Assembly: GCA_021323335.1 (NCBI GenBank)
Contig: JAJTCN010000019.1
Coordinates: 1-64,000 of the forward strand
Reading direction: 5' to 3'
DNA from: Ramlibacter sp.
GTDB taxonomy: Bacteria > Pseudomonadota > Gammaproteobacteria > Burkholderiales > Burkholderiaceae_C
DNA: 64,000 nt
In this document: positions 2,899-54,659 of the stretch, in pieces
Position numbering within the stretch: position 1 is the stretch's first letter
Layout of the letters: each line of letters opens with the position of its first letter
Translations under genes and position numbers: made by a program
The notes under the pieces: model-generated
Seen by the model: only the letters and a program-made list of their open reading frames with translations
Databases searched by the model: none
What the model was told of the DNA's origin: nothing

Positions 2899-2904
2899 TA
2901 GGAT
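2899..2904 (+). promoter_or_regulatory. Candidate -10 element of the metC-like gene, 6 nt before ATG
   Basis: TAGGAT ends exactly 6 nt before ATG 2911, predicting transcription from about the start codon. AGGA inside it could instead serve as a Shine-Dalgarno sequence, so this is the most ambiguous member of the series. Confidence 0.4.
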
Positions 2905-2910
2905 GCCGGC

Positions 2911-4119
2911 ATGAGCAAGCCGGTCACCGACCTCATCCACCACCCTTACGTCCCGCCCGCGGGCTTCGCGGCGCCGCAGCCGGGGGTCTTCAAGGCCTCC
3001 ACCGTCATCTTCCCGAACGTCGCCGCCATCCGCGCGCGCGACTGGAAGCACAAGACGGGCTACACGTACGGGTTGCACGGCACGCCGACCACCTTCCTGC
3101 TGGAGGAGCGGATCGCGGCGCTGGAAGGCGGCAAGCACTGCCTGCTGGTGCCCAGCGGCCTCGCGGCCATCACCGTCGTCAACCTCGCCCTGCTGAAAAG
3201 CGGTGACGAGGTGCTGCTGCCGGACAACGTCTACGGCCCCTCCAAGGCACTGGCGGAGGCGGAGCTCAAGGGCTGGGGCATCCGCTGCGCGCTGTACGAC
3301 CCGATGAACCCGGCGGACCTGGAAGCGCGCATCGGGCCGCAGACCAGGTTGGTCTGGCTGGAGGCGCCGGGCTCGGTGACCATGGAGTTCGTTCCGCTGG
3401 CGCACCTCGCGCACATCTGCCGCCAGCGCGGCGTGACGAGCGCGCTGGACAACACCTGGGGCGCCGGACTCGCCTTCAACGGCTTCGACCTCGGACGCGG
3501 CGACCGCTTCGTGGCGGGCAGCGGCGCCGACATCGTGGTGCAGGCCCTGACCAAGTACCCGAGCGGCGGCGGCGACGTGCTGATGGGAAGCGTGGTGACG
3601 CGCGACGACGCGCTGCACCAGAAGATCAAGCTCACGCACATGCGGCTGGGCTTCGGCGTCGGCGCCAACGACGTCGAGACGGTGCTGCGCTCGCTGCCCA
3701 GCATCGACGTGCGCTACCGCGCGCATGACCGCAGTGCGCGGGCGCTGGCGGCCTGGCTGCAGTCGCGGCCCGAGGTCGCGCAGTTGCTGCATCCGGCCTT
3801 CCCCGGTTCGCCCGGGCACGAGCACTGGCAGGCCCTGTGCGGCGACGATGGCCTGGCGGCGGGGCTGTTCTCGGTGGTCTTCGATGCGAAGTACGCCAGC
3901 GCGCGGGTGGATGCGTTCTGCGACGCGCTCAAGCTGTTCAAGCTGGGTTATTCGTGGGGCGGGCCCATCAGCCTGGTGGTGCCGTACGACATCCCGTCGA
4001 TGCGCAAGACATGGCCGCACAAGGGGACGCTGGTGCGGTTTTCGGTGGGGTTGGAGGACGTCGAGGACTTGCGCGCGGATCTTGAGCAGGCGCTGGAGGT
4101 CATGCGCCGCCCCGGGTGA
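2911..4119 (+). CDS. metC: Cystathionine beta-lyase-like PLP enzyme (MetC/Cys-Met metabolism family)
   Basis: A 402-residue fold-type I PLP enzyme of trans-sulfuration, predicted to cleave cystathionine to homocysteine, pyruvate and ammonia in the cytoplasm. The PLP-binding lysine is K215 in [15 protein letters not shown], and the [11 protein letters not shown] and ALDNTWGAG segments are the usual cofactor contacts (D180). Length matches the family. ATG 2911 is the only good start; it has a -10-like TAGGAT immediately upstream. It stands alone between a terminator and a membrane-protein gene, so the substrate is assigned by family only; other Cys/Met-metabolism lyases are possible. Confidence 0.85.
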
Positions 4120-4181
4120 GTCCCGATTGGCCGCCGGCCCGCGCGGCGGCTACCCTGCGGGACCCAAGCTGCTGCCGACCC

Positions 4182-4991
4182 ATGAACACACCGACGCCCC
4201 GACCCATGGCCGCGGATACCGCGCCCGCGGGACCCGAGGGTCCGCGGCCCGCGCGCGTGCAACGGCTGCGACCGGCGGCGCCCCTGCGCTGGCTGGCTCG
4301 CGGAGCCCGCGACCTGCGCGGCCAGCCGGGCATCGCCTTCTTCTATGGCTTCTGTTTCTGGGCGATGGCGCTGGTGCTTGGTGCGGTGTTCCGGCACAAG
4401 CCCGAATACACCATGACCATCGTCTCCGGCTGCCTGCTGGTGGGGCCTTTCCTGGCCATGGGGCTGTACGAAGTCAGCCGCCGGCGCGAGCGCGGGGAGA
4501 CGCCGGCCCTGGGCCACTCGCTGACCTGTTGGGACGGCCACCTGGGGAGCATGGGCCTGCTCGTGCTGGTGCTGACGGTATTGGAACTGCTGTGGGGCCG
4601 GGCTTCGCTGGTGGTGTTCGCGGTCTTCTTCAACACCGGCATGCCGTCCACGGCGGGCGTGCTGGAGGCGGTGTTCAACCCGCGGAACTGGCAGTTCCTG
4701 GCGGTATACCTGCTCGTCGGCGGCGTCTTCGCGGCGCTGGTGTTCTGCAGCACCGTGGTGTCGATCCCCATGATCCTCGACCGCGATACCGATGCCGTCA
4801 CCGCGGCCCTGACCAGCTTTCGCACGGTGCTGGAGAACACCGGCGTGATGCTGCTGTGGGGCACGCTGGTGGTGGGCTTGACGCTGGGCGCACTGTGGCT
4901 GCCGTGGGCGCTGGGCATCGTGGCGGTGGGGCCGTGGCTGGGGCATGCCACCTGGCATGCTTACCGCGACGCCGTCGCCTGGGACGCGTAG
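4182..4991 (+). CDS. DUF2189 family integral membrane protein
   Basis: About 269 residues from ATG 4182. The cytoplasmic N-terminal tail is rich in Pro, Ala and Arg, followed by several hydrophobic spans (near GIAFFYGFCFWAMALVLGAV, then TIVSGCLLVGPFLAMGLY and further paired helices). The GPFLAMGLYEVSRRRERGE stretch is the signature of DUF2189 inner-membrane proteins. An in-frame GTG/ATG 66 nt upstream lies in low-information sequence overlapping the end of metC, so I prefer 4182. Function is unknown; in other genomes relatives are sometimes called cytochrome c oxidase subunit I-like, which the sequence does not support. Confidence 0.75.
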   Translation: MNTPTPRPMAADTAPAGPEGPRPARVQRLRPAAPLRWLARGARDLRGQPGIAFFYGFCFWAMALVLGAVFRHKPEYTMTIVSGCLLVGPFLAMGLYEVSRRRERGETPALGHSLTCWDGHLGSMGLLVLVLTVLELLWGRASLVVFAVFFNTGMPSTAGVLEAVFNPRNWQFLAVYLLVGGVFAALVFCSTVVSIPMILDRDTDAVTAALTSFRTVLENTGVMLLWGTLVVGLTLGALWLPWALGIVAVGPWLGHATWHAYRDAVAWDA

Positions 4992-5027
4992 GCGGGCCAG
5001 GCGTCCCGGGGTTGGGCTGCGCGTCTC

Positions 5028-6089
5028 CTAGGAACGGGCGTCGACGAGGTCCCGCGCCAACGCCGCCATCGCCTCCGGCGTCCGGTCCTTCGGCGCGATC
5101 GCTTGCGCGTCCGCGAACGCCTTGAAATTGCGGCTGGTCGAACTGGCGTAACCCGGGTCGTAGTGCTTCACCAGCAGCTCGCGCACCACGCTCTCGATAT
5201 CGCCGGCGCGCACCTGCGCCTGCCACGCCTGCACCTGCTCCCGGCCGCGGATCTGCACCAGCGCGTCGAGCCGGGCGCAGAACAGGTCCGGGTCGCGGCT
5301 GAAGAATTCGTAGTCCTCCAGCAGCAGCCGCACGCGCTCGTCGTCGGCCAGGTCCAGCCGCAGGCACGGGCTGGCCCGCATCGCTTCCATCAGCGCGTCG
5401 GGCACCGCCAGGTTGCCCACCTTCTTGCTCTCGCTCTCCGCATAGACGGGCCGTGCCGGGTCGAAGCCGCGCAGCTTCTCCCACACCAGCGTGTCGAAGC
5501 GCTTCTGCGTCGGCTGCGGCTGGCCGGGAATGATGCCAAGCACCGAGCTGCGATGGCTGGCCAGCCCCTCGAGGTCCAACACCTGCGCGCCCGCCGCCTC
5601 CAGCGCCTGCAGCAGGCGCGTCTTGCCGGAACCGGTCGGTCCGCAGACCACGCGGTACTGCAGCGAGCGGGCCAGCCCGGGCAATTCCGCCAGCACCGCG
5701 GCGCGGAAGGCCTTGTAGCCGCCCTCGACGATGTGCACGTTGAAGCCGATCTGCCCCAGCACCAGCGACAGCGCGCCGCTGCGCTGGCCGCCGCGCCAGC
5801 AATACACCAGCGGCTTCCAGCCCTTGGGCTTGTCCATCACGTCGCGCGCGATATGGCGCGAGATGTTGGCGGCGACGAGCGCCGCGCCGCGCTTGCGCGC
5901 CTCGAACGGGTTGACCTGCTTGTACAGCGTGCCCACCTCGTGTCGCTGCGCGTCGTCCAGCGACGGCCAGTTGACCGCGCCGGGCAGGCGGTCCTCCGCG
6001 TATTCGCTCTCGCTGCGGGCGTCGATGACGGCGTCGAAGTCCTGCAGCCGCGCGATCGCGTCCGCCGCGCTGATCGGACGGACACTCAT
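5028..6089 (-). CDS. mnmH: tRNA 2-selenouridine synthase
   Basis: 353 residues. An N-terminal rhodanese domain carries the catalytic cysteine C97 in LVYCWRGGQRSG, the same position as in E. coli SelU. It is followed by a P-loop domain with Walker A GPTGSGKT at 150-157. MnmH replaces sulfur by selenium at 2-thiouridine of the tRNA wobble base through a geranylated intermediate, using selenophosphate. Start ATG 6089 overlaps the tesA stop by 4 nt (ATGA), so the two are translationally coupled. No selD gene is in the window, so the selenium donor must come from elsewhere. Confidence 0.92.
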   Translation of the reverse strand: MSVRPISAADAIARLQDFDAVIDARSESEYAEDRLPGAVNWPSLDDAQRHEVGTLYKQVNPFEARKRGAALVAANISRHIARDVMDKPKGWKPLVYCWRGGQRSGALSLVLGQIGFNVHIVEGGYKAFRAAVLAELPGLARSLQYRVVCGPTGSGKTRLLQALEAAGAQVLDLEGLASHRSSVLGIIPGQPQPTQKRFDTLVWEKLRGFDPARPVYAESESKKVGNLAVPDALMEAMRASPCLRLDLADDERVRLLLEDYEFFSRDPDLFCARLDALVQIRGREQVQAWQAQVRAGDIESVVRELLVKHYDPGYASSTSRNFKAFADAQAIAPKDRTPEAMAALARDLVDARS

Positions 6090-6727: not shown

Positions 6728-7421
<694 letters not shown>

Positions 7422-7428
7422 TCGCCGC

Positions 7429-8159
<731 letters not shown>

Positions 8160-8163
<4 letters not shown>

Positions 8164-9902: not shown

Positions 9903-10478
9903 CTACACCCAGCCCATCCAGCCCAGCACCGCTCCGGCGCCGAGCAGCCAGAGCAGGTGCAGCCTGGTGCGCCAGACCACGACGGCGGTGGCGATGGTGA
10001 CGGCCCAGGCCGGCCAGTTGGCCGGCGAATAGCCGCTTCCCGTCGCCAGGATCCAGCCCGTGGCGACCAGCAGGGCGACCACCAGCGGCGCCATGCCCTG
10101 CTTGAAGGCGCGCACGGCCCGCAGGTCGCGGTTGCGGTGGCTCCAGTGCGCCGTGAGGTAGACCAGCACGGAGCTGGGAAGCATGATGCCGCCCAGCGCC
10201 AGCACCATGCCCAGGGCCGCGGTGCCCAGGCCGCCCGCATTGAGGCCGACGTTCCATCCCATCAGGGCGGTGAAGAGGACGTTGGGCCCCGGCGCAGCCT
10301 GGGCGATGGCGATCGAAGCGCTGAACTGCGGATCGGTCAGCCACGCCTTTTCCTGCACCAGGAAGCGATGCATGTCCGGTGCGGTGCTGATGGCGCCGCC
10401 CACGCACAGCAGGGACAGGGACAGGTAGTGAACCAGCAGCGCCACCCAGTCGCCCCCTTGCATGACGATCGGGTTCAT
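9903..10478 (-). CDS. Chromate transporter, short subunit (second gene)
   Basis: 191 residues, about half the length of fused ChrA proteins. It contains the CHR-domain motif AAPGPNVLFTALMGWNVG and five to six hydrophobic segments. Start ATG 10478 overlaps the stop of the preceding ChrA-half gene by 4 nt, so the two halves are made together and presumably form a heterodimeric CHR transporter in the inner membrane. The family exports chromate, but substrates of many short-chain pairs are unproven. Confidence 0.88.
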   Translation of the reverse strand: MNPIVMQGGDWVALLVHYLSLSLLCVGGAISTAPDMHRFLVQEKAWLTDPQFSASIAIAQAAPGPNVLFTALMGWNVGLNAGGLGTAALGMVLALGGIMLPSSVLVYLTAHWSHRNRDLRAVRAFKQGMAPLVVALLVATGWILATGSGYSPANWPAWAVTIATAVVVWRTRLHLLWLLGAGAVLGWMGWV

Positions 10479-11062
10479 CCGAGCTTCCGCCAGGCCTGGA
10501 GGGAGCCGATCGTGCCGAGCCCGAGGAGCACCCACACCAGCGGCACCTTGAGCAGCGCGATGCCGGCGAAGGTCAGGACGCCCAGCGCCGCCGACAGCGG
10601 AATGCCCAGGACGTTCTTCTGCAGGGCGGACATCAGCTTCAGGCCCGTTCCCATGATCAGCCCAGCGGCCACCGCGCCCATGCCGCGCAATGCGCCGCGC
10701 ACGTGCGGGTCGTCCGCGAAGCCGGCATAGATCAGCGCCAGTCCCAGCACCACCAGCAGGGGCAGGGTGAGCATCCCCGCCAGGGCCACCAGCGCGCCGC
10801 GCAGGCCGAAGTAGCGCGCGCCCAGCGTGATCGACAGGTTGATCACGTTGGGGCCCGGCATGATCTGCGCCACGGACCAATCCTCGATGAATTCCTCGCG
10901 CGTCAGCCAGCGCTTTTTCTCCACCAGCTCGCGCTGCACCACGGCCAGCACGCCGCCGAAGCCCTGCAGGGCCAGCAGCGTGAAGGAGACGAAGAGGTCG
11001 GTGAGCGAGCGCGGCCGGCCCGCGGCCGGAGGCGTGGCGCCGGCGTCGATCGAGGAAGACAT
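10475..11062 (-). CDS. Chromate transporter, short subunit (first gene)
   Basis: 195 residues from ATG 11062. CHR-domain motif IMPGPNVINLSITLG with the GFGGVLAVVQRELVEKKRWLTREEF lead-in typical of the family, and about six membrane segments. An upstream in-frame extension reaches into the preceding gene and carries no similarity, so 11062 is preferred; a GATAAT -10 lies 6 nt before it. Together with the downstream half it forms a split ChrA. No regulator of the ChrB type is beside it. Confidence 0.88.
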   Translation of the reverse strand: MSSSIDAGATPPAAGRPRSLTDLFVSFTLLALQGFGGVLAVVQRELVEKKRWLTREEFIEDWSVAQIMPGPNVINLSITLGARYFGLRGALVALAGMLTLPLLVVLGLALIYAGFADDPHVRGALRGMGAVAAGLIMGTGLKLMSALQKNVLGIPLSAALGVLTFAGIALLKVPLVWVLLGLGTIGSLQAWRKLG

Positions 11063-11068: not shown

Positions 11069-11074
11069 ATTATC
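11069..11074 (-). promoter_or_regulatory. Candidate -10 element of the chromate transporter genes, 6 nt before ATG
   Basis: On the minus strand GATAAT is followed by CGGCGC and ATG. It overlaps the stop codon of the upstream EamA gene. Confidence 0.5.
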
Positions 11075-11966: not shown

Positions 11967-12892
11967 AGCCGGCGCTCCCAGACCTCGCTCACCAGGTCCT
12001 GCCCGAAGGCGTGGTTCGGCTCGCTGTCCTTCAGGGCGAAGCCGCGCGACCGGTAGATCGCGCGGGCGGCCAGCAGGTTGCTCTGGGTCCACAACATCAT
12101 CTTGCGGTAGCCCTTGCGGCGCGCGGATTCGATGCAGGCGTCGGCCAGCCGCGTGCCCAGTCCGAGGCCGCGCGCCTCGGGCAGCACGGCCAGCAGGCGA
12201 AGCTGGGCGACCGTCTGCGACTTGCGCACCAGGAACACGCAGCCCATGCGCTCGCCGTCCACCTCGGCGATCCAGCCCTGGTCGAAAGCGGGGTCGAAGT
12301 CGCGCAGGAACTTCGCGGCGATGTCGGCGACCAGCGCCTCGAACGAGCTGTCGAAGCCGTACTCGCGGGCATACAGCTCGCCGTGCACCTGCACCACCCA
12401 GCCCAGGTCGCCGGGCCGGGGATCGCGCAGCACCACCTGTCGCGGAGTGCCGGATTGCGGCTGCAGCAGGCGGTGCACCGTCTGCAGCGCGCCGATCAGG
12501 TGCGGCCGCCGGGCGGGCTCGACGCTCTCCAGCAGCCTGGCCGCCTCGTCGCGCGATTTCTGCTGCAGCGGGCCGAAGGTGGCGTACCCCGCCTGCGTCA
12601 ACCGCAGCATGTGCTGGCGCCCGTCGTGCGGCGCGGCCTCGCGCCGCACCCAGCCGGCCGTTTCGAAGCGGCGCAGGATGCGGCTCAGGTAGCCGGCGTC
12701 GAGCTCGAGGTCGCGCACCAGGTCGCGCGCGGCCAGGGGCGGCCGGTGCGCGAGTTCGTACAACACCCGCACTTCGGTAAGCGTGAAGTCCGTATCGAGA
12801 TAGCGCTTGAGCACGCCGATGCGCTGCGTGTAGAAGCGGTTGAAGGCGCGGACCGCCTTGACGTCCTCGGCGGCGATCGGGGTTCCGGGCAT
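11963..12892 (-). CDS. MarR regulator fused to a GNAT acetyltransferase
   Basis: 309 residues from ATG 12892; a TTG at 12928 would add 12 residues. The N-terminal half is a MarR winged helix (TLTEVRVLYELAHRPPLAARDLVRDLELD, with wing APHDGRQHMLRLTQAG). The C-terminal half is a GNAT domain with the acetyl-CoA loop as LPEARGLGLGTRLADACIESARRKGY. Such fusions couple ligand sensing or acetylation to repression. It overlaps the EamA exporter gene and is divergent from sorA across a 116-nt gap that contains a small palindrome, consistent with local control. Confidence 0.88.
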   Translation of the reverse strand: MPGTPIAAEDVKAVRAFNRFYTQRIGVLKRYLDTDFTLTEVRVLYELAHRPPLAARDLVRDLELDAGYLSRILRRFETAGWVRREAAPHDGRQHMLRLTQAGYATFGPLQQKSRDEAARLLESVEPARRPHLIGALQTVHRLLQPQSGTPRQVVLRDPRPGDLGWVVQVHGELYAREYGFDSSFEALVADIAAKFLRDFDPAFDQGWIAEVDGERMGCVFLVRKSQTVAQLRLLAVLPEARGLGLGTRLADACIESARRKGYRKMMLWTQSNLLAARAIYRSRGFALKDSEPNHAFGQDLVSEVWERRL

Positions 12893-12915
12893 GGCTGGAG
12901 TGTCGGGGAAATTGG

Positions 12916-12928
12916 TTGACTGCGTCAA
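12916..12928. promoter_or_regulatory. Palindrome TTGAC-N3-GTCAA between MarR-GNAT and sorA
   Basis: A perfect 5+5 inverted repeat (TTGACTGCGTCAA) lies 24 nt upstream of the MarR-GNAT start. MarR proteins bind such short palindromes, so it may be an operator; one copy only, so this is tentative. Confidence 0.4.
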
Positions 12929-13008
12929 GGAAGCTCTTTTTTCCCTAATGCGGGCCGCGTGGCCGCGCCTATGCTGCAGAGGCAGCCACTCATCAAGGAG
13001 ACAGAGGA

Positions 13009-25038: not shown

Positions 25039-25130
25039 CGAACGTTGACGGACAACTCTCCTGCACGGGCGTAGGAGCCACCCCACGGCGCCGCGCGCCG
25101 CGTCCCGATAGCTTTTGCGGGCGCGGTGGG

Positions 25131-25136
25131 CAGAGT
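25131..25136 (+). promoter_or_regulatory. Candidate -10 element, 6 nt before ATG 25143
   Basis: CAGAGT followed by GGGCGG and ATG. No separate Shine-Dalgarno is visible. Confidence 0.4.
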
Positions 25137-25142: not shown

Positions 25143-26567
25143 ATGCATATCGGACAACAGGAATGGCGCCAGCTGCAGGCCGCCCCGGGCGCCCAGCGCC
25201 CCGCCGGATTCAAGGCGCTCTACCAGGAACTCGCCGCACGGGAACCCGATGCGGCGCTCAAGCAGGCAGCGGCGGACGTGCTGCGCGCGAAGCTCGCCGA
25301 ACTCGAGGGCGCCGACTCCGGCCTGCCGGCGTCGCCGGACGACCTGCTCGCCTGGATGGAGGGCAACACGCAACGCGTGCACGAGAGCTACGCTGGCTAC
25401 CTGCAGGAGCGCAAGGCCGGCGGCCCGCGCCGTTTCTTCACGAATCGCGCGCACGCGCTGTACTTCCTGCGCTGCGTCGCGCCGACCAAGCTGGTCGACG
25501 GCGCCTGGCTCTACGGCTTGCTGGCGCACTGGCGCAACCCGCGCCTGTCCGACCTGGTGCGCACGTACGTCGAGGAGCTGGGCGAGGGCGCGGTCGACAA
25601 GAACCACGTGGTCCTGTATCGCAACCTGCTGGCGCGGCATGCCCTCGATCCGCTCGACGACCTGCCCGATTCGCTGTACGAGCAGGGCCTGCTGCAGCTG
25701 GCGCTGGGCTGGAATGCCGAAGACTTCCTGCCGGAGGTGATCGGCTTCAACCTGGGCTACGAACAGCTGCCGCTGCACCTGCTGGTGACGGCCTACGAAC
25801 TCAACGAACTCGGCATCGACCCGTACTACTTCACCCTGCACGTCACCGTGGACAACGGCGACACCGGCCACGCGCGGCGGGCCTGCCAGGCCGTGCTGGA
25901 CATGCTGCCCAGGCTGGAGGATGACGGCGCGTTCTGGCGCCGCGTCCAGGCCGGCTGCAAGCTCGCGGACGCCGGGCTGGGCACCGGCGACGTGATCGAG
26001 AGCTTCCACGTCGGACAGGAAGCGTTGCGCATCCTGGCGCAGAAATCGAAGGCCGGCGGCGGCGCGCATTCGGACTATTGCCGGGTGGCGGGACGCAGCG
26101 TGAACGACTGGCTGAGCGAGCCGCGGGAGATCTCGGGCTTCGTGCAGGCCCTGCAGCAGGCCGGCTGGCTCCGCTTCGGCGAGCCGGTGGAAAACAGCCG
26201 CTTCTGGTCCCTGCTGCAGGGCGAACGGGCGGAAATGTTCGGCGTGTTCAGCAGCTACGAGCTGCAGGTGCTGCACGACTGGATCCGTGGCGCCGCCAGT
26301 GCCGACGGCCGGCCGTATTCGGAGGCGGCGCCGGAAGGCGCTTCGCGGCGTCGCGCAACCTTCCGCGCGGTGGCGCGCAACGCGCGGCCGCTGGCCGAGG
26401 ACGACGGCGACACCCTCGACCCCGACCTGGAGCTGTTCAGGCAGCAACTGCGCGGCGCCGACGATGCCGCGCGCAGCGCATTGCTGGTGCGGGCGATGTC
26501 ACCCGCGCAGCATTGGACGCCGGCCGGCCTGGAGGCGACGCGGTTGTTCTGGCGCACGCTCTCCTGA
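25143..26567 (+). CDS. Haem-oxygenase-like diiron protein (iron-containing redox enzyme family)
   Basis: 474 residues from ATG 25143. The central part resembles the helical haem-oxygenase-like diiron oxidase (HDO) fold, with likely metal ligands E207 in LGYEQLP, then H233, D237/D240 and H243 in FTLHVTVDNGDTGHA. Relatives include oxidases that modify amines, fatty acids or amino acids. The N-terminal 180 residues are helical and the C-terminal 130 residues appear to be a separate, less conserved extension. The substrate is unknown and no biosynthetic cluster surrounds it; a TerB gene follows 27 nt downstream. Confidence 0.7.
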   Translation: MHIGQQEWRQLQAAPGAQRPAGFKALYQELAAREPDAALKQAAADVLRAKLAELEGADSGLPASPDDLLAWMEGNTQRVHESYAGYLQERKAGGPRRFFTNRAHALYFLRCVAPTKLVDGAWLYGLLAHWRNPRLSDLVRTYVEELGEGAVDKNHVVLYRNLLARHALDPLDDLPDSLYEQGLLQLALGWNAEDFLPEVIGFNLGYEQLPLHLLVTAYELNELGIDPYYFTLHVTVDNGDTGHARRACQAVLDMLPRLEDDGAFWRRVQAGCKLADAGLGTGDVIESFHVGQEALRILAQKSKAGGGAHSDYCRVAGRSVNDWLSEPREISGFVQALQQAGWLRFGEPVENSRFWSLLQGERAEMFGVFSSYELQVLHDWIRGAASADGRPYSEAAPEGASRRRATFRAVARNARPLAEDDGDTLDPDLELFRQQLRGADDAARSALLVRAMSPAQHWTPAGLEATRLFWRTLS

Positions 26568-26582: not shown

Positions 26583-26588
26583 CAGAAT
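26583..26588 (+). promoter_or_regulatory. Candidate -10 element of the TerB-like gene, 6 nt before ATG
   Basis: CAGAAT followed by GACGCC and ATG 26595. No Shine-Dalgarno in the gap. Confidence 0.4.
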
Positions 26589-26594: not shown

Positions 26595-27065
26595 ATGTTG
26601 CGCGCGCTCCAGGACCTCTTCAACGCCATCTCCTCCCCCACGCCGGCTTCACCGGCCGACGAGGAGCACGCCTTGCAGCTCGCCTCCGCCGTTCTGCTGG
26701 TGGAGGTGATGCGCGCGGATCCCCAGGTGCGGCCGGAGGAGCGCGATGCCGTGCTGGCCGCGTTGCGGCACAAGTTTCTCCTGGCACCCGACGAACTCGC
26801 ACGCCTGGTCGACCTGGCGGAGAACCACGCGCGCTCGGCCAACGATTTCTTCGCCTTCACCTCCACGCTCAACGCGCGGTTCAGCCATCCGCAGAAAGTG
26901 CGGATCGTCGAGCTCATGTGGTCGGTGGCGTTCGCCGACGGCGAGCTCGACGCGAACGAGAACCACGTGATCTCCAAGGTCGCCGGCCTGCTGCACGTGA
27001 CCCATGGCGAATACATCGCGGCCAAGCTGCACGCGCGCCAGGCCTCCGGCCTGGGCGCGCCGTGA
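26595..27065 (+). CDS. TerB-like (tellurite-resistance/DjlA N-terminal) domain protein
   Basis: 156 residues with the all-helical, acidic TerB fold: ASAVLLVEVMRADPQVRPEERDAV and the hallmark second half VELMWSVAFADGELDANENHVISKVAGLL, whose D/E residues bind metal in TerB proteins. It is a small cytoplasmic protein. TerB domains are linked to envelope stress and to DnaJ-like proteins; a J-domain gene lies about 600 nt away on the other strand. Confidence 0.82.
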   Translation: MLRALQDLFNAISSPTPASPADEEHALQLASAVLLVEVMRADPQVRPEERDAVLAALRHKFLLAPDELARLVDLAENHARSANDFFAFTSTLNARFSHPQKVRIVELMWSVAFADGELDANENHVISKVAGLLHVTHGEYIAAKLHARQASGLGAP

Positions 27066-33262: not shown

Positions 33263-33853
33263 TTACTTCTTCGCCGGCGGCTTGGCGCCGGCCTGCGGCG
33301 CGGGTGCGGCGCCGGCTGCGTTGGGCGTGATGCCCAGGCGGCGGGCGATGCTCTCCTCGAGCGCGCGAACCTTCGGCTCGACCTGGGGGCGGGTGTCCGC
33401 CACGACTTTCTCGGCCAGCACCTTCTGCATGTCGCCACCGAGCTGCTGGAACTTGGCGAAGGTGGGGGATTCGAGCATGGCGGCGATCTGCTTGAGTTCG
33501 TCCTCGGTGAACTTCTCCTCGAGCAGGGCGCCGACGGTGGACGGCGCCAGCCGCGCGGCGCGCTCGCGCACGATCGGCGTGGTCTCGTCGACGAAGCGGC
33601 GGGCATCGGCCTGGATGTCCTTGGCCACGGCTTCCCGGCGGTCCGCGGCGACGCGGGCGGGCAGGGCGGCGCTGGCGCGGGCCATCATCTCGAGCGCGGG
33701 CTCCTCGACGAGGCCCCGGGCGAGCTGGTCGATGCCGGGCTGCTGCGCCTTCAGGATGCGCGCGGCGAGTTCCTTCTTGGCGGGAGTGGACTGGGCCTGC
33801 ACGCTGGTGCAGGCGACGGCGATCGCGAGGATCAGCAGGGTTTTCTGGAACAT
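33263..33853 (-). CDS. Exported DUF2059 protein
   Basis: 196 residues from ATG 33853. Cleavable signal peptide (TLLILAIAVACTSVQAQ) then an all-helical domain (ILKAQQPGIDQLARGLVEEP, EEKFTEDELKQIAAMLESPTFAKFQQL) that fits DUF2059, and a low-complexity Ala/Pro/Lys tail. Predicted periplasmic, function unknown. A TAAACT -10 ends exactly 6 nt before the ATG and no Shine-Dalgarno is present. Confidence 0.8.
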   Translation of the reverse strand: MFQKTLLILAIAVACTSVQAQSTPAKKELAARILKAQQPGIDQLARGLVEEPALEMMARASAALPARVAADRREAVAKDIQADARRFVDETTPIVRERAARLAPSTVGALLEEKFTEDELKQIAAMLESPTFAKFQQLGGDMQKVLAEKVVADTRPQVEPKVRALEESIARRLGITPNAAGAAPAPQAGAKPPAKK

Positions 33854-33859: not shown

Positions 33860-33865
33860 AGTTTA
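33860..33865 (-). promoter_or_regulatory. Candidate -10 element of the DUF2059 gene, 6 nt before ATG
   Basis: On the minus strand TAAACT is followed by GCCCCG and ATG 33853. Confidence 0.5.
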
Positions 33866-38734: not shown

Positions 38735-38740
38735 TATACT
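38735..38740 (+). promoter_or_regulatory. Candidate -10 element of umuD, 6 nt before ATG
   Basis: TATACT followed by GGATGA and ATG 38747; it overlaps the LexA box. Confidence 0.55.
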
Positions 38741-38755
38741 GGATGAATGAACAGT
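38737..38755 (+). promoter_or_regulatory. LexA (SOS) box overlapping the umuD start
   Basis: TACTG-N9-ACAGT, i.e. CTG-N10-CAG with one deviation from the CTGT-N8-ACAG consensus. It covers both the -10 and the start codon, so LexA would block transcription start directly. Confidence 0.65.
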
Positions 38756-39184
38756 GACAGCCGCGCGGCGCCCTGGCCGTACCGCGCCGCACCGGCGCTT
38801 CGCCTGCCGATGGTGCAGGGCACGGTGCGTGCGGGCTTCCCGTCGCCGGCGGACGACTTCGCGGTCAAGCGCCACGACCTCAACGACCTCCTCATCACGC
38901 ATCCGGCCGCCACCTTCTTCTGGCGCGTGCGAGGCAGCTCCATGCTGGGAGCGGGGATCGCGGACGGCGACATCCTGGTCGTCAACCGCGCGCTGGATCC
39001 CCTGCACGGCGACATCGTGGTCGCCGAGATCGACAACGACTTCACCGTGAAGTACCTTCACCGGCGCGCGGGCAAGGTCAAGCTCGTGGCAGCCGACCCG
39101 ACGTTCCCCGACATCCTGCTGCGCGAGGGCCAGACGCTGTCGATCTGCGGCGTCGTGACGGGGGCGGTCAAGAAATTTCGTTGA
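38747..39184 (+). CDS. umuD: UmuD-like S24 peptidase, DNA polymerase V subunit
   Basis: 145 residues. Self-cleavage site A29-G30 (VRAGFPSPADD), catalytic serine S65 in RGSSMLGAG and lysine K102 in FTVKYLHR match E. coli UmuD (S60, K97). After RecA-stimulated cleavage UmuD' joins UmuC as the error-prone polymerase V. The start ATG 38747 lies inside a LexA box and 6 nt after a TATACT -10. umuC is not next to it but 6.6 kb away. Its last 17 nt overlap the convergent SRAP gene. Confidence 0.92.
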   Translation: MNSDSRAAPWPYRAAPALRLPMVQGTVRAGFPSPADDFAVKRHDLNDLLITHPAATFFWRVRGSSMLGAGIADGDILVVNRALDPLHGDIVVAEIDNDFTVKYLHRRAGKVKLVAADPTFPDILLREGQTLSICGVVTGAVKKFR

Positions 39185-39872
39185 GCAGCGGCAGGGCGGC
39201 CTGGTGCGACGGATCCGCCGGGCCGTGCGCGAACAGCTCCGGCGGTGGCAGGCGCACCAGCGCCATCGCATCCTCGACGCTGCCGTTGAGCCAGCGGTCC
39301 CAGTGCTCCCGCTCGATGGGGATGACCGATCGCTTGTCCTGCGCGTGCGCCGGCAAGGCGGGGTCCGGCTTGTGCATGCGACTGAGCAGCGGGTGGGCGT
39401 CGCAGTTCTGCGTCAGCATGGTGTAGCTCTGCACCACTTCGCCCGTGGCCGGATCGGTCCATTCGTTCCACAGGCCGGCCAGGGCCCAGGGCGCCTGGTC
39501 GCGGCGCGCGAAACGCCACCACACGTTCCGTCCCGTGCCCCAGTAAGGCTCGTCGTAGTCCACCGCGGGCACCAGGCAGCGCTGGCCGCGCAGCCAGGGG
39601 CCCTTGAAGCTCGGGGCCGTGGCCACGGTCTCGATGCGGCAGTTGTTGGTGCTGATGGGGCGCCCGCCGCGGCCGGTGGGACGGCGCGCCTTGCTGAACC
39701 AGGGGATCAGCCCCCACTGGCCCACATGGGCCGAGCCGGCGCGGATGAAGGGCCCTTGCTGCCACGGCCCGATGCCCTGGGTGGCATACAGCGGTTGCGG
39801 CTGCTCGAGCAGGGTGAAGCCGAAGACGTCGCGCACGACGGTCACGCTCACGGGCCGATAGCGGTTGCACAT
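39168..39872 (-). CDS. yedK: SRAP-family abasic-site DNA-protein crosslink protein (YedK/HMCES)
   Basis: 234 residues. The catalytic cysteine is C2 directly after the start Met (MCNRYRPVS), which fixes ATG 39872 as the start, because the thiazolidine link to abasic DNA needs a free N-terminal Cys. Other family elements are WGLIPWFSK, ISTNNCRIETV, CLVPAVDYDEPYWG and LSRMHKPDPALP. It shields abasic sites in single-stranded DNA. It is convergent with umuD, sharing 17 bp; SRAP genes are often found with SOS genes. GACAAT lies 6 nt before the start. Confidence 0.9.
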   Translation of the reverse strand: MCNRYRPVSVTVVRDVFGFTLLEQPQPLYATQGIGPWQQGPFIRAGSAHVGQWGLIPWFSKARRPTGRGGRPISTNNCRIETVATAPSFKGPWLRGQRCLVPAVDYDEPYWGTGRNVWWRFARRDQAPWALAGLWNEWTDPATGEVVQSYTMLTQNCDAHPLLSRMHKPDPALPAHAQDKRSVIPIEREHWDRWLNGSVEDAMALVRLPPPELFAHGPADPSHQAALPLLNEIS

Positions 39873-39878: not shown

Positions 39879-39884
39879 ATTGTC
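39879..39884 (-). promoter_or_regulatory. Candidate -10 element of the SRAP gene, 6 nt before ATG
   Basis: On the minus strand GACAAT is followed by CGGCGC and ATG, the same hexanucleotide spacer as before the chromate transporter gene. Confidence 0.5.
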
Positions 39885-45738: not shown

Positions 45739-45754
45739 CTGTATGCATGTACAG
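45739..45754 (+). promoter_or_regulatory. Perfect LexA (SOS) box before umuC
   Basis: CTGT-ATGCATGT-ACAG, an exact match to CTGT-N8-ACAG. It sits between bphO and umuC and contains the candidate umuC -10. Confidence 0.85.
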
Positions 45755-45755
45755 T
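45750..45755 (+). promoter_or_regulatory. Candidate -10 element of umuC, 6 nt before ATG 45762
   Basis: TACAGT followed by TCATCG and ATG; its first five bases are part of the LexA box. Confidence 0.5.
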
Positions 45756-45761: not shown

Positions 45762-47072
45762 ATGTATGCATTGGTGGATGGCAACAACTTCTACGTGAGC
45801 TGCGAGCGCGTGTTCCGTCCCAGCCTCAACGGCCGCCCGGTTGTGGTCCTTTCCAACAACGACGGCTGCGCCATCGCCCGGAGCAATGAAGCCAAGGCGC
45901 TCGGCATCCGCATGGGCACTCCCTTCCACGAGATCCGGGCGCGGCTCGCCGACGCCGGGGTGGTGGCGTTGTCGGCCAATTTCACGCTCTACGGGGACAT
46001 GAGCAGCCGGCTGATGGCCATCGCCGCGGGACTCGGGCCCGTGCAGGAGGTCTACTCCATCGACGAGTGCTTCGTCGGGCTGGCCGGGGTGCGGGGCGAC
46101 CTCCACGAGCGCGCGGCGCGCCTGCGCCAGCGCGTCGCGCAATGGATCGGCATCCCCTGCGGCATCGGCATCGGGCCCACCAAGACGCTGGCCAAGCTGG
46201 CCAACCACGTCGCCAAGGATGCGGAACGCCGGCCCGGGGCCAGTTACCCCGGCGCGCTGGCGCAGGTGTGCGACCTCTCGCGGCTGCCCGCCGGCTGCAC
46301 GCCCGACCAGGTGCTGGCGGCCACCGCGGTCGGCGACGTGTGGGGCGTCGGGCCGCGCACCGGCAGCCAGCTGGAGGGCGACGGCATCCGCAGCGCGCTC
46401 GACCTGGCCCGCGCGGACGCCGGCAGCGTGCGCCGCCGCTTCGGGGTGGTGGTGGAGCGGACGGTGCGCGAGCTGCAGGGCGTGCCCTGCATCGGGCTCG
46501 AGGACGTGCCGCCGCCGAAGAAGGAGGTGGCCTGCACGCGCGCGTTCGGCGAACCGGTGCGAACGCTCGGCCCCCTGCAGGAGGCGGTGAGCGACTACGC
46601 CGCCCGGGCGGCCTTCAAGCTGCGCCTGCAGCGCACGCGCGCGGCGCAGGTGCTGGTGTTCATCCACACCAACCCATTCCGGCGCTCCGAGAAGCAGTAC
46701 GCGCGCAGCGCCACGGTGCCCCTGCGGCGGCCGAGCGACGACACGGCCGGCATCACGCAGGCCGCGCTGCGCGCGCTGCTGTCCATCTGGCAGCCCGGCT
46801 ACCGCATCCACAAGGCGGGCGTGATCCTGCTGGACCTGCAGGACGCCGGCGTGGAGCAGGGGGAACTGGCGCTGGAGGAGGATGCGGGACGCGTTGCGGG
46901 CAGCGGCTTGATGGCCGCCCTGGATCGCCTGAACGACCGCTACGGCCGCGGCACGGTGCAGGTGGCGAGCGCCGGCCTCGGCGGCGATGCGCGAAGCTGG
47001 ACGATGAAGCAGCAATGGCGCACGCCGCAGTACACGACGCGCTGGGAAGACCTGCCGGTGGCGCGGGCCTGA
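45762..47072 (+). CDS. umuC: DNA polymerase V catalytic subunit UmuC
   Basis: 436 residues of the Y-family polymerases. Metal-binding D6 ([17 protein letters not shown]) and D101/E102 ([11 protein letters not shown]), the fingers [12 protein letters not shown], the helix-hairpin-helix [12 protein letters not shown], and a C-terminal little-finger domain. ATG 45762 is chosen over ATG 45747 because the latter lies inside the LexA box and -10. It copies damaged DNA as UmuD'2C. Regulated by LexA through the box at 45739. It is separate from umuD, which has its own box 7 kb away. Confidence 0.94.
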
Positions 47073-51637: not shown

Positions 51638-51643
51638 GGCTGC

Positions 51644-51859
51644 ATGAAGTCCAGCGACACCCGCTCCAGCCGCGCAAAACTCGGTGAGCGCCCGACGTCC
51701 TCCGTTCCGGCCCGGCCCGACCACGGCGAGAACTCCTCGAGCACGATCATCGAGGCGCCGGCCCGACGCAAGAGGCGGCTGGATGCGCATGATTTTCCGG
51801 ATGGTGGGGGCAGCGGCGGCGCCGAGGCATTCAGCCGCAAGCGCCTGGGCAAGTCGTAG
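51644..51859 (+). CDS. Small basic hypothetical protein
   Basis: 71 residues, serine- and arginine-rich (MKSSDTRSSRAKLGERPTSS, then APARRKRRLDAHDFPDGGG), likely disordered. Codons have the high third-position GC of the neighbours and a -10-like TAGATT sits 6 nt before the ATG. No homology is recognised, so it could be a chance frame in the ku-xth interval. Confidence 0.4.
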   Translation: MKSSDTRSSRAKLGERPTSSVPARPDHGENSSSTIIEAPARRKRRLDAHDFPDGGGSGGAEAFSRKRLGKS

Positions 51860-51893
51860 CCGCCAATCTACCCCGCGGTCCCGGGCAGCTCTG

Positions 51894-51899: not shown

Positions 51900-51911
51900 C
51901 GGGCCGCACCG

Positions 51912-52727
51912 ATGAAGATCGCCACATTCAACGTCAACGGCATCAAGTCACGCCTGCCGCACCTGCTGCGCTGGCTCGCGCGCGAACAGCCCGATGTCGC
52001 CTGCCTGCAGGAGCTGAAAGCCCTCGACGGAGCGTTTCCGGCCGACGAAATCCGGCAGGCCGGCTACCACTCCCTCTGGAAGGGGCAGCGTTCGTGGAAC
52101 GGCGTGGCGATCCTGGCGCGCGGCACGGAGCCGGTGGAGATCCGGCGCAGCCTGCCGGGCGACGAGGCCGACGAGCAGAGCCGCTACCTGGAAGCCGCCG
52201 TCGACGGCATCGTCGTCGGCTGCCTGTACCTGCCCAATGGCAACCCGCAACCGGGCCCCAAGTTCGACTACAAGCTGGCGTGGTTCGAACGCTTCATCGC
52301 CCACGCCCGGACGCTGGCTGACTCGAAGCACCCGGTGATCCTGTGCGGCGACTACAACGTGGTGCCGACCGACGCCGACATCTACAACCCGCGCTCCTGG
52401 CGCAAGGACGCACTGCTGCAACCGGAGAGCCGCGAGTGCTACCGGCGCCTGCTGGCGCAAGGCTGGACCGATGCGATCCGCCACCTCCATCCCGATGCGC
52501 CGATCTACACCTTCTGGGACTACTTCCGCCAGCACTGGCAGCACGACTCCGGGCTGCGCATCGACCACCTGTTGCTCAATCGCACGCTGGCGCCGTCGCT
52601 GCGCGCGGCCGGGGTGGACAAATGGGTGCGCGGGGAAGAGAAGGCCAGCGACCACGCCCCCGCCTGGGTCGAGCTGGACACTTCCCTGCAGAAGCCGTCC
52701 CGGCCCGCGCGGAAGCGGGCGTCCTAG
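51912..52727 (+). CDS. xth: Exodeoxyribonuclease III / AP endonuclease
   Basis: 271 residues of the ExoIII/APE1 fold: metal ligand N7 region MKIATFNVNGIKSRL, E34 in CLQELKA, YLPNGNPQPG, GDYNVVPTDAD, the recognition helix TFWDYF and catalytic SDHAPAWVEL at the end. It removes 3' blocks and incises abasic sites in base-excision repair. Located 50 nt after a small ORF, with no strong RBS; the short predicted leader fits the other genes here. Confidence 0.93.
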   Translation: MKIATFNVNGIKSRLPHLLRWLAREQPDVACLQELKALDGAFPADEIRQAGYHSLWKGQRSWNGVAILARGTEPVEIRRSLPGDEADEQSRYLEAAVDGIVVGCLYLPNGNPQPGPKFDYKLAWFERFIAHARTLADSKHPVILCGDYNVVPTDADIYNPRSWRKDALLQPESRECYRRLLAQGWTDAIRHLHPDAPIYTFWDYFRQHWQHDSGLRIDHLLLNRTLAPSLRAAGVDKWVRGEEKASDHAPAWVELDTSLQKPSRPARKRAS

Positions 52728-52820
52728 GCAAATTCCCTAGCGGCGGCGGCCGCTTTCCCCTATCGCGCGGATGAGCACGTTCTGTTTTCATCCCGTTACG
52801 TTGTACATGGGAGAGAACAA

Positions 52821-53447
52821 ATGGGCGAGACGCCGAGCGACGCACTGTGGTTGGAAGCGCTTTCGGACAAGGTGCTGCACCAGTTGCCACCGAAGGTCTG
52901 GAAGGAACTGATCCTCGGCGCGGGGCGCGCCAGCATCCGGTTCGAGCAGCGGCAACTGACGCTGGTGCACGTCGATGCGCAGACGCCGGTCGGCCAGCCC
53001 GGCAGCGCCACCGAAGGCTTCTACCAGGAGCTGCAGCGCATCAATGCGCGCCATGACGGCCGCCTCGACCCCTATGTGGACGCCGCCGCCCTGGTCACGT
53101 TCGAGGATCCGCGCGCGGCCATGGGAATGGCCATGGAACTGCAGCGGTTCGCCGGCGACGTCCGGCTGCGCATCGGCATCGTCAGCGGCCCGTGCACGCT
53201 GGCTTTCTTCCGCGCGCAGGGGCGCCTGTGGTGCACCCCGCTGGGCGCGCAGCCCGCCCGCGCCGCGGAAGTCGCGGCCGCCGCCGTGATCGGGGGCATC
53301 GTGATTTCGCCGGAGGCCTATGCCTGCGACGACCTCGACACCCGGCCCGCCCCGCTGGACTTCGGCGCCGACTTCGAGGACTCCGAGCGCGACATGGCGT
53401 CGCTGGCCGCCGACCCGCCCGGCGTGGACGTCGACATCTCGGTCTAG
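52821..53447 (+). CDS. Class III cyclase-like domain lacking catalytic residues
   Basis: 208 residues with a strong RBS (gggagag). The pattern follows adenylate/guanylate cyclase domains: LTLVHVD (D52), DPYVDAAALVTFEDPRAAMGMAMELQRF (D87) and VRLRIGIVSGPCTLAF, then LWCTPLGAQPARAAEVAAAAVIGGIVISPEAY. The two metal-site [13 protein letters not shown] be kept, but where active enzymes have GDxVNxAARL this protein has GAQPARAAEV, so the transition-state Asn and Arg are missing. It is probably a non-catalytic regulator. The first 45 residues are helical and the tail is acidic. Confidence 0.6.
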   Translation: MGETPSDALWLEALSDKVLHQLPPKVWKELILGAGRASIRFEQRQLTLVHVDAQTPVGQPGSATEGFYQELQRINARHDGRLDPYVDAAALVTFEDPRAAMGMAMELQRFAGDVRLRIGIVSGPCTLAFFRAQGRLWCTPLGAQPARAAEVAAAAVIGGIVISPEAYACDDLDTRPAPLDFGADFEDSERDMASLAADPPGVDVDISV

Positions 53448-53452
53448 GGCGC

Positions 53453-54358
53453 TCAGCGCGCCTTGCGCGCGTCCTCGAGGTCGCGGATGCGCTGGCGCGC
53501 GTCGTCCCCCTCGGGGATCGGCTGGCCGCCATCGCGCCATGCGACGGCGGCCTTGAACCCTTCGGCCTGCGCATAGCGGCGGAACCAGAGTCCCTCGGGG
53601 TTGTGGCGGGTAATGCCGTCGAACAGCGTCGCCAGGCTCTGCGACTGCTCCAGCCCCATGTTCAGCATCACCTGGTTGACCACCATCTTGTGCATGGCGA
53701 GGTGGCTGCGCGGCACGCCCGCGATACGCTGGGCCAGCGCCATCGTGGCGCCGTCGAGCGCGGCCGCCGATACCGCATCGTTGGCGAGGCCCCAGGCGAA
53801 CGCCGTCCGCCCGTCGATGGTGTCGCCGGTGAACATGAGCTGCTTGGCGCGGGTGGGGCCGAGCCGGTACGTCCACATGGCGGTGGTCGGGCAACCCCAC
53901 ACCCGCGTGGGCATGTAGCCGATGCGCGCGTCCTCCGCCATCACCAGCAGGTCGCAGCACAGCGCGATGTCGCTGCCGCCGGCGACCGCATGGCCGTGCA
54001 CCTTGGCGATGGTGGGCTTGGGGCTGCGCCACAGGCTCATGAAGTCCTCGGTGTTGCGCTTCATGTAGGCGTAGTCGACCATCGGGTCCCAGGGCGCGCG
54101 CTCCTGCTGGCAGGGATGGTCGATCTCGCCCTGGCCGAACTGCGCCAGGTCGTAGCCGCCGCAGAAGCCCTTGCCCGCGCCTTCCACGACGATGACGTGC
54201 ACTTCGTCGTCGGCATTGGCCCAGTCCACGGCGGCGCGGATCTCGCGCGGCATCTCCTCGTTGATGGCGTTCAGCCGCTCCGGCCGGTTCAGGAGCAGGC
54301 GCGCGACGCGCGGTTGCGCGGCGTCCTTTTCGATCTGCAGGGTGCTGTAGCTGGGCAT
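53453..54358 (-). CDS. Enoyl-CoA hydratase/isomerase-family protein
   Basis: 301 residues, crotonase fold. Oxyanion-hole segments are [16 protein letters not shown] and [34 protein letters not shown]. An insertion of about 35 residues ([20 protein letters not shown]) after the first segment is found in a subgroup of crotonases. The exact reaction cannot be assigned; the Glu residues of classical hydratases are not clearly placed. RBS ggagac precedes ATG 54358, and a TAGACT -10 lies 30 nt before it. Confidence 0.85.
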
Positions 54359-54458
54359 GGCGGGTCTCCTCGTCGGTTCGGGTCCAGTCTAGCGAAGCGA
54401 AGGACCGTCCTACAGCGCCCCGGCGGGCCTGCTTGCACTCCGGGCGCGCCGAGGCTCC

Positions 54459-54464
54459 TAGAGT
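54459..54464 (+). promoter_or_regulatory. Candidate -10 element, 6 nt before ATG 54471
   Basis: TAGAGT followed by CCCTGC and ATG; a TTGCAC at 54433-54438 is a distant -35 candidate (20-bp spacing). Confidence 0.45.
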
Positions 54465-54470
54465 CCCTGC

Positions 54471-54659
54471 ATGAGCACGAACACCAGCATCGGCCCCGAC
54501 GCCAACCGGGCGGGCAACGACAACCCGGGCAATGCCGACGGCTGCGGCAACAAGACGCTGGGCGACCAGGCCACGCAATTGCCGCCCACCGGCGCGGATG
54601 CGCAAGGCGAGGCAGCACAGGCGGACCCGTCGCGCGACAAGGCGCCCAAGGAGCGCTGA
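54471..54659 (+). CDS. Small acidic, disordered hypothetical protein
   Basis: 62 residues, rich in Gly, Asn, Asp, Ala and Gln (SIGPDANRAGNDNPGNADGC, then ADAQGEAAQADPSRDKAPKE), no hydrophobic segment. Composition resembles hydrophilin-like stress proteins. A TAGAGT -10 directly precedes the start and a TGTAGGAC octamer lies about 60 nt upstream. Family not recognised. Confidence 0.5.
   Translation: MSTNTSIGPDANRAGNDNPGNADGCGNKTLGDQATQLPPTGADAQGEAAQADPSRDKAPKER

What the first reader, a model, noticed from the sequence alone, without database searches (positions are those of the whole stretch)
2899..54471. Eleven genes with a -10 hexamer exactly 6 nt before the start codon: predicted leaderless transcripts
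Seen directly: TAGGAT (metC), GATAAT (rlmB), GATAAT (chromate transporter, minus), CAGAGT (25143), CAGAAT (TerB), TAAACT (DUF2059, minus), TATACT (umuD), GACAAT (SRAP gene, minus), TACAGT (umuC), TAGATT (51644) and TAGAGT (54471). In all eleven the second base is A and the sixth is T, the two most conserved -10 positions, and the gap to ATG is 6 nt. Sigma70 starts about 7 nt after the -10, so RNA would begin at the AUG. Most have no Shine-Dalgarno. Leaderless genes are well known in Deinococcus and Actinobacteria but not usually noted as common in Burkholderiales. -35 elements are weak. TAGGAT at metC could also be an RBS.
Basis: partly seen in the sequence, partly recalled or inferred. Interest (0 to 1): 0.78.

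Follow-up and report, generated by a model that had tools for sequence, protein, structure and literature searches.

The report
Leaderless genes in a Ramlibacter relative
A sizeable minority of this bacterium's genes appear to start their RNA right at the start codon, with no ribosome-binding leader, and in two likely DNA-damage genes the promoter, repressor site and start codon seem fused into one short stretch.

Summary
In detail: all eleven hexamers lie six bases before the start codon. It is also genome-wide: in 1.297 Mb sampled, 66 of 575 ATG genes without a Shine-Dalgarno sequence have a strong -10 hexamer at exactly -12, against a mean of 2.3 at 62 background offsets. Orthologs support most cases, some at spacing 7-8: rlmB keeps a -10 at spacing 5-8 in 78 of 80 Comamonadaceae loci. 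metC's TAGGAT is TAnnAT in most relatives, so a -10 rather than a ribosome-binding site. Weakest are umuC, the 25143 gene and terB. Best explanation: promoters working like sigma70 -10 elements, giving leaderless mRNAs. No RNA 5' ends were available. Leaderless mRNAs are already reported in Burkholderia, Cupriavidus and other beta-proteobacteria. Newer here: conservation across Comamonadaceae, and an SOS variant. In umuD and a PA0069-family radical-SAM gene a LexA-type box spans -10, predicted RNA start and start codon; its core keeps that place in 4 of 5 umuD relatives kept, and the fused form in 13 of 30 radical-SAM loci, own included.

The parts
2899..2904 (+). -10 hexamer TAGGAT, 6 nt before ATG 2911 of metC-type gene (2911-4119)
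   Evidence: strict -10 at spacing 5-8 in 20 of 23 relatives kept; nAnnnT at spacing 5-7 in 21 of 23
7417..7422 (+). -10 hexamer GATAAT, 6 nt before ATG 7429 of rlmB (7429-8163); contains the TAA stop of the upstream called gene (ends 7421)
   Evidence: strict -10 at spacing 5-8 in 78 of 80 Comamonadaceae loci, 64 at exactly 6
11069..11074 (-). -10 hexamer GATAAT, 6 nt before ATG 11062 of chromate transporter gene (10475-11062)
   Evidence: strict -10 at spacing 5-8 in 9 of 10 relatives kept: 1 at 6, 1 at 5, 5 at 7, 2 at 8
   Evidence: nAnnnT at spacing 5-7 in 12 of 14 relatives, but 0 of 14 by the strict motif, which this hexamer itself fails
25131..25136 (+). -10-like CAGAGT, 6 nt before ATG 25143 (Haem_oxygenas_2 family gene, 25143-26567)
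   Evidence: nAnnnT kept in 3 of 5 relatives, 0 of 5 strict
26583..26588 (+). -10 hexamer CAGAAT, 6 nt before ATG 26595 of terB-like gene (26595-27065)
   Evidence: kept in the 1 relative found
33860..33865 (-). -10 hexamer TAAACT, 6 nt before ATG 33853 (gene 33263-33853, 'DUF2059' in the finding)
   Evidence: strict -10 in 12 of 12 relatives kept, 9 at spacing 6 and 3 at 5
38735..38740 (+). -10 hexamer TATACT, 6 nt before ATG 38747 of umuD (38747-39184)
   Evidence: kept at spacing 6 in 4 of 5 relatives kept, all four with GTG starts; the fifth, L171, is 45% identical
38737..38756 (+). LexA-type box TACTG-N10-CAGTG overlapping the umuD -10, predicted RNA start and start codon
   Evidence: (1 mismatch); the gene identified as lexA in this genome has a perfect TACTG-N10-CAGTA box upstream (L388)
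39879..39884 (-). -10 hexamer GACAAT, 6 nt before ATG 39872 of SRAP gene (39168-39872; start MCNRY)
   Evidence: strict -10 at spacing 5-8 in 14 of 22 relatives kept, nAnnnT at 5-7 in 5 of 7 of at least 50% identity
39895..39916 (-). terminator-like hairpin (7 G-C pairs, loop 3) plus 5 T, ending 22 nt before the SRAP ATG
   Evidence: fold (-16.9 kcal/mol, z -1.96); similar by eye in L194-L196; not reported by the pattern scan
45750..45755 (+). -10 hexamer TACAGT, 6 nt before ATG 45762 of umuC (45762-47072)
   Evidence: strict -10 in only 2 of 17 relatives kept, both at spacing 7 (L164, L165)
45739..45754 (+). LexA-type box CTGT-N8-ACAG overlapping the umuC -10
   Evidence: CTG-N10-CAG core also in L164, not in L165
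51632..51637 (+). -10-like TAGATT, 6 nt before ATG 51644 of a 71-aa ORF (51644-51859) with relatives in the genus
   Evidence: nAnnnT at spacing 5-7 in 8 of 12 relatives, 0 of 12 by the strict motif
54459..54464 (+). -10 hexamer TAGAGT, 6 nt before ATG 54471 of a 62-aa ORF (54471-54659) with relatives in the genus
   Evidence: strict -10 at spacing 5-8 in 6 of 7 relatives

Best explanation
These genes have promoters that work like sigma70 -10 elements, placed so close to the gene that RNA starts on, or one or two bases before, the A of the start codon. The mRNA has no Shine-Dalgarno leader, and translation would use the leaderless route, in which the ribosome recognises a 5' AUG directly. Shown here: sequence geometry, positional peak across the genome sample, ortholog conservation of hexamer and near-constant spacing for most of the genes, no detectable -35 in the leaderless set as a whole, preference for ATG over GTG/TTG, and LexA-type boxes lying on the predicted promoters of umuD and umuC. 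Inferred: the actual start of the RNA, the sigma factor, LexA binding, and the leaderless translation route.
For: Peak at -12: 68 of 858 ATG genes; 66 of 575 without SD, background mean 2.31, max 6 over 62 offsets; a mono-shuffle of the last 20 nt reaches at most 10 in 1000 runs. The same kind of hexamer forms a second, broader peak at -38 to -32 in ATG genes with an upstream gap of 50 nt or more, as leadered promoters should. ATG bias: 66 of 575 no-SD ATG genes versus 4 of 167 no-SD GTG/TTG genes, p = 0.0001. Ortholog conservation. LexA-type boxes over umuD and umuC. SRAP has a terminator-like hairpin ending 22 nt before its ATG. Comamonadaceae loci after removing 49 likely rlmB genes: 45 of 458 ATG genes, mean 3.4 at -60 to -42.
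Against: No transcript 5' ends were available. Gene starts come from a home-made, unvalidated caller. Relatives often keep spacing 7 or 8 rather than 6 (rlmB 13 of 80; chromate transporter 7 of 10), which would leave a 1-2 nt leader. umuC has the -10 in only 2 of 17 relatives, both at spacing 7. By the strict motif the MarR-GNAT (0 of 14), 25143 (0 of 5) and 71-aa ORF (0 of 12) relatives fail; only the looser nAnnnT is kept (versus 47). terB rests on one relative. 28 of the 66 lie less than 50 nt behind a same-strand gene, so read-through RNA could also carry them. rlmB in other families has no exact-spacing -10 (0 of 22 strict; nAnnnT at 5-7 in 3 of 21, equal to background 3.1). Four genomes of other Burkholderiales families show no peak (4 of 228).
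Confidence: 0.9

Rival explanations
1. The hexamer is a translation signal: a Shine-Dalgarno or A/T-rich ribosome-binding element at the usual distance, with RNA starting further upstream.
For: metC TAGGAT contains AGGA; the distance suits an SD. 5 of 23 metC relatives score as SD.
Against: 66 of the 68 strong ATG cases lack AGGA/GGAG/GAGG; metC relatives also have TACCAT, TAACAT and TAGCAT; the hexamer is an A2/T6 -10 pattern and LexA-type boxes cover it in umuD and umuC.
Confidence: 0.05
2. Coincidence: in a 70% GC genome the rare AT patches near start codons yield xAxxxT by chance.
For: xAxxxT is loose; background offsets give a mean of 22.5 of 858 ATG genes.
Against: 96 of 858 at -12; strict motif 66 versus 2.3 of 575; conserved in orthologs of most of the genes.
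Confidence: 0.02
3. The -10 is real but the promoter makes very short leaders (1-5 nt) or serves as an internal promoter inside operons, with the main translation from read-through RNA.
For: 28 of 66 have a same-strand neighbour less than 50 nt upstream; relatives show spacing 7-8.
Against: Exact spacing 6 dominates among no-SD ATG genes (66 at -12, 17 at -13, 15 at -14, 14 at -15); these genes lack an SD that read-through RNA would normally use.
Confidence: 0.15

Closest known systems
TA-led (leaderless) bacterial genes of Zheng et al. 2011 (PMC3160421; passages seen)
   Same: -10-like TANNNT signal about 12 bp before the start codon in place of an SD; beta-proteobacteria listed with 9 of 71 genomes, mean 6.8% of genes in those.
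   Different: Here the hexamer often begins with G or C (GATAAT, GACAAT, CACAAT, CAGAAT); conservation per gene across a family is shown; the passages seen do not name the beta-proteobacterial genomes.
Leaderless transcripts of Burkholderia cenocepacia J2315 (PMC4603805; passages seen)
   Same: Burkholderiales; mapped start sites at the start codon (72 genes, plus 42 within 10 nt; 24 of these are tRNAs) with a TA-rich motif directly upstream.
   Different: Other family; experimental; the passages seen mention no LexA fusion. Rates are not directly comparable.
Leaderless mRNAs of Cupriavidus metallidurans CH34 (PMC7563307; passages seen)
   Same: 4.67% of primary start sites leaderless; TAnAAT -10 flanked by GC-rich DNA; classes K and L enriched.
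   Different: Other family; any leader under 5 nt counted as leaderless; experimental, not comparative.
LexA-controlled SOS promoters (general design recalled; box of this genome's lexA)
   Same: TACTG-N10-CAGTA-like box overlapping the predicted promoter of umuD and of a radical-SAM gene, CTGT-N8-ACAG over that of umuC.
   Different: In umuD and the radical-SAM gene the box spans the start codon and its right half encodes Met-Asn-Ser.

Membership tests
TA-led leaderless bacterial genes | -10-like signal at about -12 from the start codon, above chance genome-wide | tested here: met
   66 of 575 no-SD ATG genes versus background 2.31, in 1.297 of 4.49 Mb
TA-led leaderless bacterial genes | No Shine-Dalgarno sequence | tested here: met
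   66 of 68 strong ATG cases lack AGGA/GGAG/GAGG at -16 to -5; metC is one of the two exceptions and is explained by relatives
TA-led leaderless bacterial genes | RNA 5' end at the start codon | not testable with these tools
   no transcript data held
TA-led leaderless bacterial genes | Signal kept in orthologs at about the same spacing | tested here: met
   strict -10 at spacing 5-8: rlmB 78 of 80, metC 20 of 23, 'DUF2059' 12 of 12, chromate 9 of 10, 62-aa ORF 6 of 7, umuD 4 of 5, SRAP 14 of 22, terB 1 of 1. Not met strictly for umuC 2 of 17, MarR-GNAT 0 of 14, 25143 gene 0 of 5, 71-aa ORF 0 of 12; the last three keep nAnnnT in 12 of 14, 3 of 5 and 8 of 12
Sigma70 promoter of the -35/-10 kind | -35 element at 15-19 nt | tested here: not met
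   leaderless set (66) 2.61 matches versus 2.54 (sd 0.08) in shuffles; leadered set (57) 2.96 versus 2.63 (sd 0.09). So 'works like a sigma70 -10 element', not filed as a -35/-10 promoter; the MarR-GNAT gene is an exception with TTGAC kept
LexA/SOS regulon (umuD, radical-SAM gene) | LexA-type box at the promoter | tested here: met
   box at -10 to +10 of both genes
LexA/SOS regulon (umuD, radical-SAM gene) | LexA binding and induction by DNA damage | not testable with these tools
   needs footprint or expression data

The most novel reading that the evidence does not exclude
In Ramlibacter a 22-bp module fuses -10 element, LexA operator, transcription start and start codon: the operator itself encodes the first amino acids, LexA covers the initiation codon, and on DNA damage the cell makes leaderless SOS mRNAs (UmuD and a PA0069-family radical-SAM protein) that can be translated by the leaderless, possibly stress-tolerant, route.
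Probability: 0.5. Interest if true: 0.6.

Novelty: new member of a known kind. Interest (0 to 1): 0.48.

Why it matters
It suggests that in this Comamonadaceae genome about 7-8% of ATG genes are leaderless, and that a leaderless design can be kept gene by gene across a family (rlmB) while its surroundings turn over. Distance-based operon calls and SD-based start calling would go wrong for such genes (rlmB and the chromate gene sit 7 nt behind the previous stop codon). The SOS genes offer a testable case in which one repressor site would control both RNA start and start codon.

Tried and rejected
Rejected: SD reading of TAGGAT at metC (relatives). Rejected: chance for the set. Rejected: leaderless rlmB as an order-wide trait (other families 0 of 22 at exact spacing 6, 1 at spacing 8). 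Tried: peak in four genomes of other Burkholderiales families, 100 kb each, 4 of 228 ATG genes at -12 with summed background means of about 4.0; small samples, so this shows lower frequency, not absence. In the same call the Comamonadaceae figure (45 of 458) may still hold some rlmB genes, since the filter removed only 49 of up to 80, and repeats orthologs of shared neighbours. Tried: Rfam on the window, no hit at gathering threshold; tRNA scan, none; plasmid search with rlmB, no match over 80% of the query. The terminator scan near SRAP missed the hairpin, possibly because G-T pairs extend the stem into the T run (my guess). A fold upstream of metC covered only part of its hairpin and showed nothing. 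LexA-like sites in L395 and L396 gave no called gene; the first perfect site, L387, lies before no called gene. Avoidance of T as first base before AnAAT (3 T of 34 at -12 against 25 T of 96 at background offsets) is suggestive only. Functional enrichment of the leaderless genes was not tested.

Rows dropped in the ortholog counts: alignments starting after residue 12, no start codon near, or under 60 nt upstream; one search also dropped relatives under 50% identity. Loci given (own included) and relatives kept: metC 25 of 30 loci given, 23 kept; rlmB 80 given, 80 kept; other families 23 of 30 given, 22 kept; chromate and MarR 17 of 30 given, 10 and 14 kept; 25143 gene and terB 10 of 13 given, 5 and 1 kept; 'DUF2059' 16 given, 12 kept; SRAP 30 given, 22 kept; umuC 19 of 30 given, 17 kept; umuD sought in 19 loci (L163-L180 and L193), 5 kept; 71-aa ORF 17 given, 12 kept; 62-aa ORF 8 given, 7 kept. 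For the radical-SAM gene 43 of 61 genomes matched and 30 loci were returned and used. L398 and L399 show the same letters around the start, so the 13 fused cases are 12 distinct ones.
Full report
What was checked. The window is G000:C145:1-64000 of a 4.49 Mb draft in 165 contigs, 70.3% GC. The three closest RlmB relatives listed are from Ramlibacter, Comamonadaceae (89-91% identity). Two of them, at 51644 and 54471, precede short ORFs (71 and 62 aa) with relatives in 16 and 7 of 40 other genomes searched. A twelfth case, GACACT before the MarR-GNAT gene at 12892, was missed.

Genome-wide test. I sampled 80 stretches of the same genome, taken by contig number, plus the window (1.297 Mb) and called genes with a codon-score caller that ignores upstream motifs: 1071 genes, 858 with ATG. 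A strong hexamer (A2, T6, at least 4 of 6 TATAAT) starts at -12 in 68 of 858 ATG genes, against 8 at -11 and 18 at -13. Without SD it is 66 of 575, background mean 2.31, maximum 6 over 62 offsets. With only A2 and T6 required it is 96 of 858, background mean 22.5, an excess of about 73 genes, or 8.6%. A broader second peak at -38 to -32 in genes with an upstream gap of 50 nt or more marks ordinary leadered promoters. GTG/TTG genes without SD show 4 of 167.

Promoter anatomy. The leaderless set (66) has no -35 signal above shuffles, while the leadered set of the same genome (57) does. TG before the hexamer is seen in 7 of 66. The commonest hexamers are GACAAT (8), CACAAT (8), GATAAT (6) and CAGAAT (5); most others start with T but are imperfect; TATAAT itself is 0 of 66. 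As a set these look like -10-only promoters. The MarR-GNAT gene is an exception: TTGAC near the -35 position is kept in its relatives.

Conservation. In 80 Comamonadaceae loci, 78 rlmB genes have a strict -10 at spacing 5-8 (64 at 6), and GATAAT is the hexamer in 76 of these 78; no upstream column looks like a -35, and C follows the hexamer in 73%. In 22 loci of other families it is 0 at exact spacing 6 and 1 at spacing 8. With nAnnnT at spacing 5-7, relatives of at least 50% identity give (mean of background offsets in brackets): metC 21 of 23 (1.9), rlmB 73 of 80 (8.4), chromate 7 of 10 (0.1), MarR-GNAT 12 of 14 (1.5), 25143 gene 3 of 5 (0.4), terB 1 of 1 (0), 'DUF2059' 12 of 12 (0.7), umuD 4 of 4 (0.1), SRAP 5 of 7 (0.2), umuC 2 of 8 (0.3), 71-aa ORF 8 of 12 (0.9), 62-aa ORF 6 of 7 (0.4). 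By the strict motif at spacing 5-8 MarR-GNAT (0 of 14), the 25143 gene (0 of 5) and the 71-aa ORF (0 of 12) fail, and umuC is 2 of 17, both at spacing 7. For SRAP the start is fixed by the MCNRY start (that Cys2 is catalytic in SRAP proteins is recalled), and a terminator-like hairpin with a T run ends 22 nt upstream (similar by eye in L194-L196).

SOS genes. This genome's lexA (TIGR00498, 222.6 bits) has a perfect TACTG-N10-CAGTA box upstream and an SD-like GAGG leader. In umuD a matching box (1 mismatch) covers bases 3-6 of the -10, the predicted RNA start and the start codon. Of 5 umuD relatives kept, four (L166-L169, 74-77% identity) have CTG-N10-CAG in the same place with GTG starts, two of them with the full TACTG; the fifth (L171, 45%) has none. 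A PA0069-family radical-SAM gene elsewhere in the genome (L389, NCBIfam 383 bits, cut-off 360) has the same layout: CATACT-GTATGC-ATGAACAGTA. Of 30 radical-SAM loci (own included), 13 have the box at -10 to +10 with the in-frame ATG in it; 4 have such an ATG out of frame with the start downstream; 8 have only boxes without that ATG; 5 show no TACTG-N10-CAG box near the projected start, one of these, L414, having CTG-N10-CAGTA. So the fusion is one of several states. LexA binding is inferred from the box alone. In umuC the box overlaps the -10 but not the start codon; L164 shares its core, L165 does not.

Lineage. Flanks of rlmB in Comamonadaceae loci give 45 of 458 ATG genes at -12 after removing 49 likely rlmB genes; these loci share neighbours and may still hold some rlmB, so genes are not independent. 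Four genomes of other Burkholderiales families, 100 kb each, give 4 of 228, equal to background.

Known work. Leaderless genes are established: Zheng 2011 (PMC3160421, passages), B. cenocepacia (PMC4603805, passages), C. metallidurans (PMC7563307, passages). In the held library no paper holds both 'leaderless' and 'Comamonadaceae'; two hold 'leaderless' and 'Variovorax', by title genome papers on other organisms (listing only); a search for 'LexA box' with 'translation start codon' and 'overlap' found none. 'LexA', 'leaderless' and 'SOS' found 21 papers, 12 listed, none read. A search for LexA regulon, Betaproteobacteria and splB listed 9, none read. This does not prove absence from print.

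Verdict. It is a well-supported new lineage for a known phenomenon; the fused SOS module is the part worth a bench test.

Noticed in passing
L389:1501-1522 (own genome C161), minus strand: A PA0069-family radical-SAM gene has -10, LexA-type box and start codon fused as in umuD; 13 of 30 loci (own included) share it in frame.
   Followed up: yes
window 7417-7422 and 11069-11074: The TAA stop codon of the upstream called gene lies inside the GATAAT -10 of rlmB and of the chromate transporter gene (gap 7 nt), so distance-based operon prediction would join genes that probably have their own promoter.
   Followed up: partly
window 12892-12940, minus strand; L236-L252: The MarR-GNAT gene keeps TTGAC-N3-GTCAA or TTGAC-N3-GGCAA near the -35 position in relatives, perhaps both -35 and its own operator.
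   Followed up: no
L123:14366-14428 and L155:1876-1931: Two divergent gene pairs, 61 and 54 nt apart, both genes of each pair predicted leaderless.
   Followed up: no
window 51644-51859 and 54471-54659: Two short ORFs (71 and 62 aa) with relatives in same-genus genomes and no NCBIfam match; likely real small proteins.
   Followed up: partly
window 2864-2886: Inverted sequence attcccgccttcgcgggaatgac lies just upstream of the metC -10 (that it is a dispersed repeat type is recalled, not tested).
   Followed up: no
window 25098-25132: A GC-rich hairpin (-17.4 kcal/mol, z -1.95) ends next to the CAGAGT hexamer of the 25143 gene.
   Followed up: no
own genome sample, leaderless hexamers: Before AnAAT at -12 the first base is G 16, C 14, T 3, A 1 (background offsets C 37, T 25, G 18, A 16): the consensus T seems avoided.
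   Followed up: partly
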